Source: Flavobacteriales bacterium (GTDB taxonomy: Bacteria > Bacteroidota > Bacteroidia > Flavobacteriales_D > Crocinitomicaceae). Taken from it: a DNA stretch of 64,000 nt. The DNA lies in contig JADFAL010000047.1 in assembly GCA_015665275.1 (NCBI GenBank), positions 1 to 64,000 on the forward strand, read 5' to 3'. The notes under the pieces were generated by a model. That model was given only the letters and a program-made list of their open reading frames with translations, was not told the origin of the DNA and did not search any database. This document shows, in pieces, positions 30,352 through 33,992 of this stretch (its first letter is position 1; the number at the start of each line of letters is the position of its first letter). A program made the position numbers and the translations under genes.

Positions 30352-31302
30352 TTAGAACTTGTAACGTCCTCTCCAACGGTTCGATCGACGCGATTTCGCG
30401 TAATCTTTATAAGTAATGTTTCTTGCAACAACAATGTTAATCGTGTAAAACGCATCGTTTTGAGTGTCTCCACGTTGCTGATCTGCAGCGAACCATGAAA
30501 TGTTCTCAGTTGCAGGATTGGATAACAAAGCTGATTGCTCACCGTATTCGGCCAACAAAAGGTCGCGATCGTAGTACGTTCCGCTTACATCATCCATGTA
30601 ATCTGTAAATGTCTTAATGTACGTTGCTTCGATTCCTAATCTCCACATACGGCCAATTCCCATTCGCATACCAATACCAAAAGGAATGGTAGCTGTTACC
30701 CCTAGAACTTCAGAGGGTCCATCTGGTAAACCTTGCCCTTCTGTACGAAGCGGACGAAGTGCTACCCAGTTACCATTGTAACGTGCTTTCGGGTTAAAGT
30801 AATTAACTCCTGCTCCTGTAAAGATGTACACTTGTTCGTTGCGATTTTTCATTTTACGACGGTGCCCACCTAAACCATAACGGTTTCCAAATTTTTCGTT
30901 TGCAATCAGAATTACCTCAATTCTCTGTTGCAATTCAAAAAACATTGAACGGAAATGCAAGTTACGAGACTGACGAACGATTTCGTTGGTCAAAGCATCG
31001 TCACCGCGTACCATACCAATATTCAATGTAGTTGATGTAGCCCATCTTGGGTGAAAACGGAAACGATAACCAACCATTCCGCCAAGACTAGTTGAAGGCC
31101 AATCCAAATCGGCAAGGCTGTAATCCGTACCAATTTGATCTCTTCCTCCCAAGTCTCCAAGGAATTGTGTTGCACCGAAACCGAAAAGAATCTCTTTTTT
31201 ATTCAACGCCCAGTTACTCTGAGTATTGAAGTTGGTGTGCTGCGCATGCGAGTAGGAAGCTGTCGCAGCAAATAGTAGTAATAGAAAAAATGAATTTCTC
31301 AT
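30352..31302 (-). CDS. Outer-membrane beta-barrel protein, PorG-like (DUF6089)
   Basis: 316 residues from the ATG at 31302, which begins a good signal peptide (MRNSFFLLLLFAATASYS). The mature part is beta-rich with an early EILFGFGATQFLGDLGG motif and YRFRFHPRWATSTTLNIGMV, the pattern of the DUF6089/PorG family of T9SS outer-membrane components. Its C-terminus ends in Lys/Arg residues and Phe. The assignment to PorG itself is moderate. It follows the sigma factor and membrane protein genes but has its own promoter (31343-31373). A role in T9SS assembly is plausible. Confidence 0.62.
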   Translation of the reverse strand: MRNSFFLLLLFAATASYSHAQHTNFNTQSNWALNKKEILFGFGATQFLGDLGGRDQIGTDYSLADLDWPSTSLGGMVGYRFRFHPRWATSTTLNIGMVRGDDALTNEIVRQSRNLHFRSMFFELQQRIEVILIANEKFGNRYGLGGHRRKMKNRNEQVYIFTGAGVNYFNPKARYNGNWVALRPLRTEGQGLPDGPSEVLGVTATIPFGIGMRMGIGRMWRLGIEATYIKTFTDYMDDVSGTYYDRDLLLAEYGEQSALLSNPATENISWFAADQQRGDTQNDAFYTINIVVARNITYKDYAKSRRSNRWRGRYKF

Positions 31303-31342
31303 TCCAGTTAAGTTTGAGGTATTTACCTGTTTTTCAACGCTA

Positions 31343-31373
31343 CAAAAATATGAATGTTTTTGTAACTGTGCAA
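31343..31373 (-). promoter_or_regulatory. Promoter of the PorG-like gene
   Basis: On the minus strand TTG (31373-31371) and -7 box TATTTTTG (31350-31343) are 20 bases apart, a full match to the Bacteroidota promoter plan. It lies about 40 bases upstream of the ATG at 31302. Confidence 0.65.
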
Positions 31374-31452
31374 TTATTGAGGTTAACATTTTATTAAACG
31401 TCAAATGTTGAAGAATGGTTGCCCGAATTGAGCCTTCAATTCCTTTGAGTTA

Positions 31453-32238
31453 TTAAGGATGCGTTGTCAATGAAAATTTCTTGAGTTGCACTGGGTTTCC
31501 GTCACGATCTTCTGCCTTGAAATTAGAGAATGTAACTTCAATTGGCGATCCACAATCGCGAATTTCATCACAAACTTGATCTGGAAGTCTATTTCCGCGA
31601 ATTCTTGCCGTAATATCACGAGCACATGAACGGTATTGGATTGTATACTGATGGATGAGAACTCCTCCGTTAACTTGGATTCCAAGAGGGTCACAGAAAT
31701 CTTTGAAAGCAATAGGACCTCCGGAAACTCCAGCTACGTTTGGAAGACCAGCCTCAACCTTCTTCTCTTCAACTTCGTTTTCCTGCGTTGTTCTAGCAGC
31801 CGTATTGTTTACTGATTCTTCAACTGGATTTTCATTCACGGCAACAGAAGGGGGTACTTCAGGAGTAACAGGTTGTGTGTTATTTTCTTCAACTGGGACT
31901 TCTGGTGAAGAATCAGCACTTGACTCAAGCTTCTGATTTTCAGTAGATTTTAGTGTTTCCCGAACAACCGAATTCTTTTCCTCGTCGTTGGTTGCCGACA
32001 TGGCTAAAACATTGTTCTGCTTCGGATCTTTATCTGGTGCATCCGAACTGGAAAGTGTTACGGCAGTTACGATAATAGCAACTGTTGCAACACCAACTGT
32101 TCCATAGAACCAATTCGTTTGCCAGTAGGGTTTTCCGAGACCTTTCGCACCATTAACCACATTTGCGAAATCCTGTTTAGACCGTATTTGCTCTGAGCTT
32201 AGTTGCTTGCGGTCTAAAATGGTCTTTATTTTTTCCAT
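31453..32238 (-). CDS. Single-pass membrane protein following the sigma factor gene (possible anti-sigma factor)
   Basis: 261 residues. The N-terminal ~37 residues are cytosolic and charged (EKIKTILDRKQLSSEQIRSK), one transmembrane helix follows at about 45-63 (GTVGVATVAIIVTAVTL), then a ~100-residue low-complexity Glu/Pro/Thr/Asn periplasmic linker and a folded C-terminal domain with four Cys (FKDFCDPLG, YRSCARDITA, VCDEIRDCGS). The gene begins 8 bases after the ECF sigma factor and shares its operon. Size and topology suit an anti-sigma factor, but no known anti-sigma domain is visible. Confidence 0.7.
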   Translation of the reverse strand: MEKIKTILDRKQLSSEQIRSKQDFANVVNGAKGLGKPYWQTNWFYGTVGVATVAIIVTAVTLSSSDAPDKDPKQNNVLAMSATNDEEKNSVVRETLKSTENQKLESSADSSPEVPVEENNTQPVTPEVPPSVAVNENPVEESVNNTAARTTQENEVEEKKVEAGLPNVAGVSGGPIAFKDFCDPLGIQVNGGVLIHQYTIQYRSCARDITARIRGNRLPDQVCDEIRDCGSPIEVTFSNFKAEDRDGNPVQLKKFSLTTHP

Positions 32239-32246
32239 TTGTATTA

Positions 32247-32813
32247 TTATTTCATAAATAGCTTCTTTAACCTCTCGAGTGCCCTGAAGGTCCGTACCTT
32301 TGCATTGTTCTCCGTAATTTCAAGGATCTCGCCGATTTCTCGGTACGATCGTTTCTCGAAATAACGCAATTCGATCAATTGCAAATCTCCATCTTTCAAC
32401 AAAGACAAACATTGTAACAGCTTTTTCTTGTTAGTTGCGGAATCGTCTTCTTCAAATTCCTCCACCATCTCGAAAAGGTGCATGCTTTCTACGCTTACCG
32501 TCCTTCTTGCTTTTCTATCGCGAAATGCCTGGTATAATTCGCTTTTCGCAATGCGATATAGCCAAGAAGAAAATGGTACTCCTCTGTATTCGTACTTATG
32601 TAAGTTTTTCAACGCTTTAATAAATACTTGAGAAGTGACATCGAAAGCCAAATGTTCATCATCCATCCGTTGATAGATGTAGCGAAATATCTGTTCATGA
32701 TATTTCTGATACAGTGGTCCGAATCGCTCCGGATTATCCTTTGCCGCCTGAATAATACCCAACTCCTCTTGGAGACGGTCATTCGTCTGGTGGTAAACAG
32801 GGTTCACTGCCAT
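32247..32813 (-). CDS. ECF-type RNA polymerase sigma factor
   Basis: 188 residues. Region 2 spans about 25-95 (FGPLYQKYHEQIFRYIYQRM, VTSQVFIKALKNL, FSSWLYRIAKSELYQAFRDR) and region 4 about 125-185 (LIELRYFEKRSYREIGEILE, then ENNAKVRTFRALERLKKLF). No signal peptide. In this phylum some ECF factors (SigP of Porphyromonas) direct T9SS genes. Its neighbours, a membrane protein and a PorG-like barrel on the same strand, make control of secretion or envelope stress a reasonable inference. Confidence 0.93.
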   Translation of the reverse strand: MAVNPVYHQTNDRLQEELGIIQAAKDNPERFGPLYQKYHEQIFRYIYQRMDDEHLAFDVTSQVFIKALKNLHKYEYRGVPFSSWLYRIAKSELYQAFRDRKARRTVSVESMHLFEMVEEFEEDDSATNKKKLLQCLSLLKDGDLQLIELRYFEKRSYREIGEILEITENNAKVRTFRALERLKKLFMK

Positions 32814-33002
32814 TGGTTCTGGTTTAAAATAGTTCTAGTTTGGTTTTATAAAGCTTGCAGACTTTATACTCCCATAACTGTTAATAATACATTTGGTTAC
32901 AATGTCTAACGCAAAAACGTTGCCAATATTATGCATACATATTAAAAGTCTTTGTTAATAAGCATTTACAAATCATTTTTAAGCTACAAAAACTTTCATA
33001 AC

Positions 33003-33992
33003 TTATCGAAAATCACGTAAATAGCTTGTATCTGTCAACGTTTTGAGAAAGGTAATCAAATATTTTTTTTCATCGCTGTTGAGCGTTCGATTTCTGATGC
33101 GAGCGTCTTGGTACTCCCCACCCGCCCCTCCAGTGGCGTAGTGATTTACTACTTCCTCCAGAGTACTCATAGAACCATCATGCATGTACGGAGCTGTTAG
33201 GGCTATGTTTCGAAGACTAGGTACCTTGAATGCCCCAGTTTTAAGCTCATCACCCGCAATTCGATACTTGCCCGGATCATCACCATAACCTTTATACAAT
33301 CCATTATTCAGTGCTTCGTAATTGGTGAAATTCGGCAACGAATGGCATTGAATGCATTGCAGGCTATTGAACAATTCCCAACCTTTCTTGACATCATCAG
33401 AAATCTCTCCATCACCGCTAAGGAAACGATCAAACTCACTGTTCTTGGACTCAAGTGTTCGTTGAAAGGATGCCAAGGCCCGCGTCACAACCCAAGCATC
33501 CAAGTCTCTTTTATAAAGCTGACGGGCAGCATCCACATAGTGTGGAACGGTATTCAAACGCTTGATTAAGTCGCCCATGGGCATGTTCATTTCATTTGAA
33601 TCCTGAATGGGAACAATAGCCTGTTCTTCGAGCGTTTTAATATGTGCATCAAACATGAATACGGGAGCATCAGCAACATTCAAAATGGAAGATGCATTTC
33701 GGAAGGATAACTTGCCTCCCACTCCTTCAGACTTTACCTTCCCGTCCGTAAACGCCAATTCAGGTTTGTGGCAATTAGCACAAGAAGTTGATCTATCAAT
33801 GGAAAGACTTGGATCAAAAAACAATGCTTTACCAAAATCTTCTTTTGTATCGAACGCGTAATCCTCCTCCAACTCTCCGCTTCCAACAGTTGCTCCTGCA
33901 TCAATCTGGTAAGTAGAAAAAATGCGATAAGCGCCAAAAGCTGCAATCAACATCAAAAATAGAATGAATACGATCCTTCCTGATTTGCTCAT
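33003..33992 (-). CDS. Dihaem cytochrome c peroxidase, membrane-anchored
   Basis: 329 residues with one N-terminal transmembrane segment (IVFILFLMLIAAFGAYRIF), two haem c motifs, CANCH at about residue 73 and CIQCH at about 215, and the conserved GKALFFDPSLS and PSLRNIALTAPYMHDGS segments of the CcpA/MauG superfamily. It should reduce hydrogen peroxide in the periplasm with electrons from cytochrome c. Candidate Met and His axial ligands (MHDGSM, MNMPMG) are present. It is divergent from the DUF4421 gene and monocistronic. Confidence 0.93.
   Translation of the reverse strand: MSKSGRIVFILFLMLIAAFGAYRIFSTYQIDAGATVGSGELEEDYAFDTKEDFGKALFFDPSLSIDRSTSCANCHKPELAFTDGKVKSEGVGGKLSFRNASSILNVADAPVFMFDAHIKTLEEQAIVPIQDSNEMNMPMGDLIKRLNTVPHYVDAARQLYKRDLDAWVVTRALASFQRTLESKNSEFDRFLSGDGEISDDVKKGWELFNSLQCIQCHSLPNFTNYEALNNGLYKGYGDDPGKYRIAGDELKTGAFKVPSLRNIALTAPYMHDGSMSTLEEVVNHYATGGAGGEYQDARIRNRTLNSDEKKYLITFLKTLTDTSYLRDFR

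What the first reader, a model, noticed from the sequence alone, without database searches (positions are those of the whole stretch)
30352..32813. ECF sigma factor, Cys-rich membrane protein and PorG-like barrel in one locus
The sigma gene is followed after 8 bases by a single-pass protein with a long periplasmic linker and a four-Cys domain, then by a T9SS-like barrel with its own promoter. SigP-type ECF factors regulate T9SS in Porphyromonas. The membrane protein has no known anti-sigma domain and could be a new kind of sensor for secretion load or disulfide state.
Basis: inference. Interest (0 to 1): 0.6.

Follow-up and report, generated by a model that had tools for sequence, protein, structure and literature searches.

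The report
Sigma-factor switch with secretion-machine docking domain
A bacterial gene switch holds its regulator at the inner membrane with a protein whose outer end resembles the part of a secretion motor that grips its ring, so it may let the cell sense how that machine is doing.

Summary
The three genes are real: ECF sigma (32813-32247), 8 bp, single-pass membrane protein (32238-31453), 150 bp, PorG-like barrel (31302-30352). Sigma and membrane protein are an old pair: its N-terminus follows sigma in 78 of 80 named loci. The 'four-Cys domain' is a GldM/PorM D4-type domain, the module that docks the type IX secretion (T9SS) motor on its ring. Its cysteines are not conserved, so a disulfide sensor is unlikely. 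In relatives the domain is often a separate protein beside a larger anti-sigma candidate; fused and separate states change at least five times on the sigma tree. The barrel is a PorG paralogue without the tail cysteine; in some genera it leaves sigma but stays beside pyrD. An ECF-like promoter precedes sigma in 73 of 76 loci with a periplasmic anti-sigma candidate and 9 of 26 without, followed by a covarying leader hairpin. Best reading: an autoregulated sigma/anti-sigma unit that reads T9SS state through a GldM-like domain. Architecture shown; anti-sigma action, ligand and regulon inferred. New variant of a known kind.

The parts
32874..32901 (-). ECF-type promoter TGTAAC-N17-GTTAT upstream of the sigma gene
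   Evidence: One search gives the place. In relatives (states A, B, C as in the report), allowing 1 mismatch: 41 of 41 A, 20 of 21 B in the family, 12 of 14 B outside it, 7 of 18 C, 2 of 8 without the gene; shuffles 0.4%
32846..32869 (-). Leader hairpin: 8-bp covarying stem, conserved 8-nt loop TCTGCAAG at 32861-32854
   Evidence: (46 chosen sequences): 86.4% of cells paired (shuffled mean 63.3), 82 cells with both sides changed (27.4); 42.1 bits here, next best in the own genome 16.7; no Rfam family
32247..32813 (-). ECF sigma factor, 188 aa
   Evidence: Pfam Sigma70_r2 and r4_2; NCBIfam sigma70-ECF superfamily 87.7 bits against cut-off 42.9
31453..32238 (-). Single-pass membrane protein, putative anti-sigma factor, 261 aa
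   Evidence: 8 bp after sigma; N-terminus adjacent to sigma in 78 of 80 named loci
32110..32238 (-). Cytoplasmic N-terminus, aa 1-43: presumed sigma-binding segment
   Evidence: Conserved LDR..LSSE.I..RQDF-like pattern; predicted helices 15-21 and 24-32; binding inferred
32050..32109 (-). Transmembrane helix, about aa 44-63
   Evidence: Hydropathy maximum at 44; predicted helix 47-64
31756..32049 (-). Periplasmic disordered tether, about aa 64-161
   Evidence: Low pLDDT; 76-127 aa, median 99, in the 41 proteins of A2
31456..31755 (-). GldM/PorM D4-type domain, aa 162-261
   Evidence: pLDDT 84-97 per block of ten; PorM/GldM lead sequence and fold searches; Pfam GldM_4th in 16 of 41 proteins of A2, not in the window's own
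31343..31373 (-). Sigma-A-like promoter of the barrel, TTG-N20-TATTTTTG
   Evidence: such a site upstream of 10 of 27 barrels, shuffles 2.8%
30352..31302 (-). PorG-like outer-membrane barrel, 316 aa, no cysteine
   Evidence: 33% identity over 240 aa to the genome's own PorG, E 1.2e-29; below the PorG cut-off

Best explanation
An autoregulated ECF sigma/anti-sigma unit that watches the type IX secretion machine. The short cytoplasmic N-terminus of the membrane protein holds the sigma. One helix crosses the inner membrane and a ~100-residue flexible tether crosses the periplasm. The tether ends in a GldM/PorM D4-type domain, the module with which the T9SS motor grips the PorN/GldN ring. Occupancy of this domain (free GldN, the ring, or the PorG-like barrel next door) sets whether sigma is held or freed; freed sigma transcribes its own operon and possibly a gldN copy. 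Shown by computation: pair, architecture, D4 homology, conserved promoter-like site and leader hairpin. Inferred: anti-sigma action, the ligand, the release step, the regulon.
For: D4 identity: PorM are the top three of four PDB sequence hits (E 0.0015, 0.0016, 0.0026); Foldseek's first seven chains (four entries) are PorM/GldM; Z 11.5-10.6 against 6.3 for the next entry; the same profile finds full GldM proteins, five of five checked having all four GldM domains; GldM_4th matches 16 of 41 proteins of A2, no other family more than 2. Literature: PorM D4 contacts PorN (PMC12421860, passages). Fused and separate D4 interchange: fewest A/B changes on the sigma tree 5, plus a fused form after a sigma in another family of the class (L291). 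Promoter-like site in 73 of 76 loci with a periplasmic anti-sigma candidate against 9 of 26 without. T9SS translocon SprA in 149 of 150 family genomes. A promoter-like site lies 60 bp upstream of one gldN of the own genome (GldN by Pfam); second gldN copies have one in 4 of 7 against 2 of 38 control genes. In Flavobacterium psychrophilum one ECF-type promoter motif precedes a PorG homologue, GldN, PorU and a sigma/anti-sigma pair (PMC9723704, first part of the promoter section with Table 2, plus passages).
Against: No contact between sigma and the N-terminus, or between D4 and any partner, was modelled. The 18 loci labelled C have no D4 on the anti-sigma chain, and none of the 12 with enough flank has it downstream, although T9SS is near-universal in the family. 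The whole gene is missing in eight loci. The exact promoter pattern is not enriched in the own genome (7 sites against 12 in the reversed control); no site was found in the sprA and porG regions. With relatedness taken into account the promoter/anti-sigma link falls to p 0.06-0.125. First gldN copies mostly lack a site (3 of 24), and so does the own genome's second copy. The window protein alone gives no Pfam GldM_4th hit.
Confidence: 0.5

Rival explanations
1. A split version of the Dma design: the D4-type domain docks on the neighbouring PorG-like barrel, not on the T9SS ring, and the pair reports outer-membrane state. Dma proteins carry the barrel on the same chain after TM and tether; here barrel and anti-sigma are two proteins joined by a docking domain.
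For: Same order of parts as Dma2 up to the C-terminal module (PMC13088901, passages). All 31 fused (A) loci with enough flank have the barrel next door, B 13 of 19, C 7 of 12.
Against: The barrel remains beside pyrD without sigma in several genera, and has its own sigma-A-like promoter. Seven C loci keep the barrel without any D4. Homology of the N-terminus to Dma was not tested.
Confidence: 0.27
2. The barrel is a bystander. Sigma and membrane protein form one unit; the PorG-like gene belongs to the pyrD neighbourhood and only lies next to it.
For: Barrel adjoins pyrD in 20 of 20 regions fetched around barrels, 12 of them without sigma in front; in the 14 order-level and 5 class-level sigma loci no full-length barrel was annotated next door (L292 has an 80-aa barrel-profile match about 1.9 kb upstream).
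Against: Adjacent in 51 of 62 named loci with enough flank; PorG kinship fits a GldM-type domain. Not exclusive with the best explanation.
Confidence: 0.4
3. The membrane protein is a redox sensor whose four cysteines form disulfides that set sigma release.
For: Four cysteines in the window protein.
Against: Cys occupancy 32, 4, 32 and 7 of 64 at the four columns; none in the domain of 17 of 41 same-build proteins.
Confidence: 0.04
4. The membrane protein does not inhibit the sigma; it is an activator, or a decaying accessory.
Against: Gene position and single-pass build are typical of anti-sigma factors (general knowledge); the ECF-type promoter is found in only 2 of 8 loci without the gene.
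Confidence: 0.12

Closest known systems
Dma (dual membrane-spanning anti-sigma) proteins of Bacteroides thetaiotaomicron
   Same: N-terminal sigma-binding part, one TM helix, long disordered tether, cognate ECF sigma, outer-membrane barrel in the system (PMC13088901: outline, introduction, passages)
   Different: Tether ends in a GldM D4-type domain, not in a fused barrel; the barrel is a separate, PorG-like gene
GldM/PorM of the type IX secretion motor
   Same: N-terminal TM and C-terminal D4-type domain
   Different: No D1-D3 recognised; tether disordered; N-terminus tied to an ECF sigma; GldM proper lies elsewhere in the genome
[quoted passage not shown]
   Same: Homologous barrel, 33% identity over 240 aa to the genome's own PorG
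   Different: Below the NCBIfam PorG cut-off; no tail cysteine for the GldK/PorK disulfide
ECF promoter group SM6 of Flavobacterium psychrophilum (PorG homologue, GldN, PorU, sigma/anti-sigma pair)
   Same: ECF-type promoter linked to T9SS parts and to a sigma/anti-sigma operon (PMC9723704)
   Different: Orthology of that pair with this one not tested; no sensor domain described in the parts that I read
SigP with PorXY of Porphyromonas gingivalis
   Same: ECF sigma linked to T9SS; autoregulated (PMC7712824, passages)
   Different: Activated through PorX; here a membrane partner is encoded beside the sigma

Membership tests
GldM/PorM | C-terminal D4 domain | tested here: met
   hhalign against 25 GldM: P 1.9e-5, probability 77%
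GldM/PorM | Domains D1-D3 (GldM_1st to GldM_3rd) | tested here: not met
   No such Pfam hit; tether disordered
PorG | Score over the NCBIfam equivalog cut-off of 130 bits | tested here: not met
   62.5 bits; another gene of the genome scores 168.4
PorG | Cysteine in the periplasmic C-tail | tested here: not met
   No cysteine in the window barrel; true PorG has C300 of 304; feature from PMC12635249 (passages)
Dma anti-sigma factors | Single TM plus long disordered tether | tested here: met
Dma anti-sigma factors | Barrel on the same polypeptide | tested here: not met
   Barrel is a separate gene 150 bp downstream
Dma anti-sigma factors | Homologous N-terminal sigma-binding domain and ECF21 sigma | not tested
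   No Dma or ECF21 sequence was at hand
Anti-sigma factors with a known domain (zinc type, FecR type) | Pfam or NCBIfam anti-sigma domain | tested here: not met
   None; no cysteine in residues 1-43
ECF sigma factors | Region 2 and region 4 and the superfamily cut-off | tested here: met
SigP | Orthology and activation by PorX | not tested
   No SigP sequence fetched; PorX binding needs experiment

The most novel reading that the evidence does not exclude
Bacteroidota have a dedicated T9SS assembly gauge: an anti-sigma factor carrying a copy of the motor's own ring-docking domain competes with GldM for GldN or the ring; loss or excess of free docking sites frees an autoregulated ECF sigma, which restores gldN and its own operon, with a leader hairpin tuning sigma translation.
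Probability: 0.25. Interest if true: 0.85.

Novelty: new variant of a known kind. Interest (0 to 1): 0.6.

Why it matters
How cells sense assembly or load of the type IX machine is largely open. In Porphyromonas the link runs through a soluble regulator: PorX binds SigP (PMC7712824, passages) and, by the title of PMC5005315 (listing), the motor subunit PorL. A membrane anti-sigma candidate that ends in the motor's ring-docking domain would be a second, more direct kind of link, and it is testable. It would also extend the Dma idea to a two-protein form. The repeated joining of the same two modules and the covarying leader hairpin give handles for experiments in cultured Crocinitomicaceae (Crocinitomix, Taishania, Lishizhenia).

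Tried and rejected
Disulfide sensor: rejected, cysteines not conserved. Barrel as PorG itself: rejected. Genome-wide regulon from the exact promoter pattern: no enrichment, 7 sites against 12 in the reversed control. Promoter near other T9SS genes: in three regions scanned the only site is the one upstream of gldN, which reads on both strands; about one site was expected by chance in all that sequence. HMM of the D4-type domain against ORFs of the GldM loci found nothing at E 10, while Pfam GldM_4th and the profile-profile comparison did. Pfam GldM_4th also rings, below cut-off, in 5 of 14 unrelated control genomes, so weak single hits were not used alone. Leader hairpin as a known RNA: no Rfam match. 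The large periplasmic part of B-type relatives: predicted, no solved fold at E 0.001. T9SS presence as discriminator: useless, 149 of 150 have SprA. Stem counts on A4 are biased in the inner pairs, since rows were chosen for a loop with at most one mismatch and at least 4 stem pairs; 48 were found, two (L166, L212) dropped before alignment. Matches of profile A2 at order and class level (301 of 399; 190 of 395) include GldM itself, so they are not counts of the locus. L183 (contig end) was left out of the sigma tree.

Full report
What is there. On the minus strand lie an ECF sigma gene (32813-32247), a 261-aa membrane protein (32238-31453) after 8 bp, and after 150 bp a barrel (ATG 31302, end 30352), with pyrD and an HMGL-type lyase behind and a MauG-type peroxidase in front. 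The membrane protein has no recognised domain in Pfam or NCBIfam.

The membrane protein is modular. A search of 150 family genomes matched 97, but in many the N-terminus (about aa 1-80) lies on one ORF and the C-terminal domain on another. Annotating the fetched loci gave four states: A, N-terminus, TM, tether and C-terminal domain on one chain (the window); B, N-terminus and TM on a larger protein with an unknown periplasmic part (537-585 aa in the named loci, besides three of 222-340 aa), the C-terminal domain being a separate protein downstream in 17 of 19 named B loci with enough flank and in 7 of 14 order-level ones; C, a remnant of 59-110 aa in the named loci; none. Of 103 sigma loci labelled, 41 are A, 35 B, 18 C, 8 none and 1 at a contig end. 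B is the state of all 14 order-level loci fetched, so it is probably ancestral. The fewest A/B changes on the sigma tree are 5. A fused form also stands after a sigma in another family of the class (L291). Repeated joining of the same two pieces argues that they work together.

The C-terminal domain is GldM/PorM D4-type. AlphaFold with 41 sequences gives pLDDT 84-97 per block of ten over residues 161-261. Foldseek's first seven PDB chains are PorM or GldM, E 1.1e-4 to 0.033. VIA-align gives Z 11.5, 11.4, 11.4 and 10.6 for 7cmg, 6ey6, 6ey5 and 6ey4, in each case to the last ~110 residues, and 6.3 for the next entry. A profile of the 41 proteins finds PorM 6ey5, 6ey6 and 7cmg as the top three of four PDB sequence hits, E 0.0015 to 0.0026. 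The same profile matches the ends of many ORFs of about 540-590 aa in other families; five of five that I fetched carry GldM_1st to GldM_4th. Pfam GldM_4th scores over its cut-off at this locus in three sister genomes (G025, G141, G047) and matches 16 of 41 proteins of the alignment at E 0.1 or better, best 3.3e-5; the window protein itself gets no hit. Profile-profile comparison with 25 GldM is in register but modest (P 1.9e-5, probability 77%), and an HMM of the domain did not find GldM ORFs. In print, PorM D4 contacts PorN of the ring (PMC12421860, passages). The cysteines are not conserved (17 of 41 have none).

The barrel is a PorG paralogue. It aligns at 33% over 240 aa with the genome's own PorG, E 1.2e-29, but scores 62.5 against a cut-off of 130, while the own PorG scores 168.4. 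PorG is held to GldK by a C-tail cysteine (PMC12635249, passages); the window barrel has no cysteine at all. The barrel profile matches 149 of 150 family genomes; where only a weak match at about E 1e-30 to 1e-40 is present, that is probably true PorG alone. All 20 regions fetched around barrels have pyrD next to it; sigma lies in front in 8 of these 20. Of 62 named loci with at least 4.2 kb downstream of sigma, 51 have the barrel (A 31 of 31, B 13 of 19, C 7 of 12). So the barrel is a frequent partner, not an obligate one.

Control region. A TGTAAC-N15..18-GTTAT site, up to one mismatch, lies upstream of sigma in 41 of 41 A, 20 of 21 B in the family, 12 of 14 B outside it, 7 of 18 C and 2 of 8 loci without the gene; shuffled sequences 0.4%. 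A strict pattern finds it in 42 of 83 leaders. A+B against C+none: 73 of 76 against 9 of 26, Fisher 2.7e-10, which ignores relatedness; in 7 independent pairs it goes the same way in 4-5, the other way in 0, and does not differ in 2-3, p 0.06-0.125. In genus group g11 (unnamed; perhaps Fluviicola proper, not verified), where the gene is absent, a terminator-like stem follows sigma in the four loci viewed, then the barrel, and none of five g11 loci has the site. Between promoter and start codon lies a hairpin with loop TCTGCAAG: exact loop in 35 of 83 leaders, a related hairpin in 56 of 83. On 46 chosen sequences 82 cells change on both sides against 27.4 in shuffles and 9-31 when slid. It has no second good copy in the own genome (42.1 against 16.7 bits) and no Rfam match. 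Its role is unknown; it sits at the presumed 5' end of the sigma mRNA.

Link to T9SS. SprA is in 149 of 150 family genomes. In three T9SS regions of the own genome the only site within one mismatch is 60 bp upstream of a gldN (G000:C6; GldN by Pfam); about one was expected by chance in all that sequence, so place, not number, is the point. Over gldN genes of relatives, second copies have a site in 4 of 7, control genes in 2 of 38, Fisher 0.003; first copies have one in 3 of 24 and, of the six, only in the own genome. The three negative second copies are the own genome's and those of G059 and G088, both of group g11: the sigma locus of G059 lacks the membrane protein and G088 has no match to it. 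In Flavobacterium psychrophilum one ECF-type motif precedes a PorG homologue, gldN, porU and a sigma/anti-sigma pair (PMC9723704). This supports, but does not prove, a T9SS regulon.

Mechanism. By general knowledge of ECF systems, and as PMC7712824 says (passage), an ECF sigma is in most cases regulated by an anti-sigma factor encoded just downstream; the joint decline of promoter and gene fits. Dma2 has the same order of N-terminal part, TM and tether, then a barrel (PMC13088901, passages). Here the tether ends in a domain whose known job is to grip the T9SS ring. I therefore think that the unit reads free GldN, ring state, or the PorG-like barrel. Which one is undecided: the ring by what D4 is known to bind, the barrel by its presence in all 31 fused loci tested.

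Novelty in print. Searches of the held library for 'anti-sigma factor' + 'type IX secretion' + 'GldM' gave 0 papers; 'anti-sigma' + 'type IX secretion system' + 'PorM' gave 3, two of which I read in part, the third only in the listing; 'Crocinitomicaceae' + 'sigma factor' + 'secretion' gave 0. Subscription papers and preprints are not covered.

Noticed in passing
window 32846-32869 (minus) and leaders of sister sigma genes: Covarying leader hairpin with conserved loop TCTGCAAG just before the sigma gene; not seen in the 14 order-level leaders viewed, no Rfam match.
   Followed up: partly
L268, L269, L270, L284, L285 (group g11), L274, L283: The sigma gene persists without its membrane partner; a terminator-like stem follows sigma in the g11 loci viewed, and the ECF-type site is missing in 6 of these 7.
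   Followed up: yes
L298 (G000:C6:8500-18000): The own genome carries two GldN and two GldM genes in one cluster, suggesting a second motor or ring set; Pfam finds no D4 on one of the two GldM.
   Followed up: partly
L123, L127, L132: Secreted-looking ~246-aa proteins with a GldM_4th match that look like free GldM D3-D4 pieces; no sigma in the stretch held.
   Followed up: no
B-type relatives, e.g. L197:6576-8333: Anti-sigma candidates of about 550 aa with a large periplasmic part of unknown fold (beta domains around a 75-residue helix); related stretches occur in two other ORFs of the own genome (L055, L056).
   Followed up: partly
L034:5545-6042 and relatives (s130): Small protein of about 130-165 aa between D4 protein and barrel in many B-type loci; no Pfam match.
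   Followed up: no
window 33003-33992 (minus): A MauG-type di-haem peroxidase precedes the sigma in several genera of the family.
   Followed up: no
L212, L269, L285: Tandem duplication of the PorG-like barrel.
   Followed up: no
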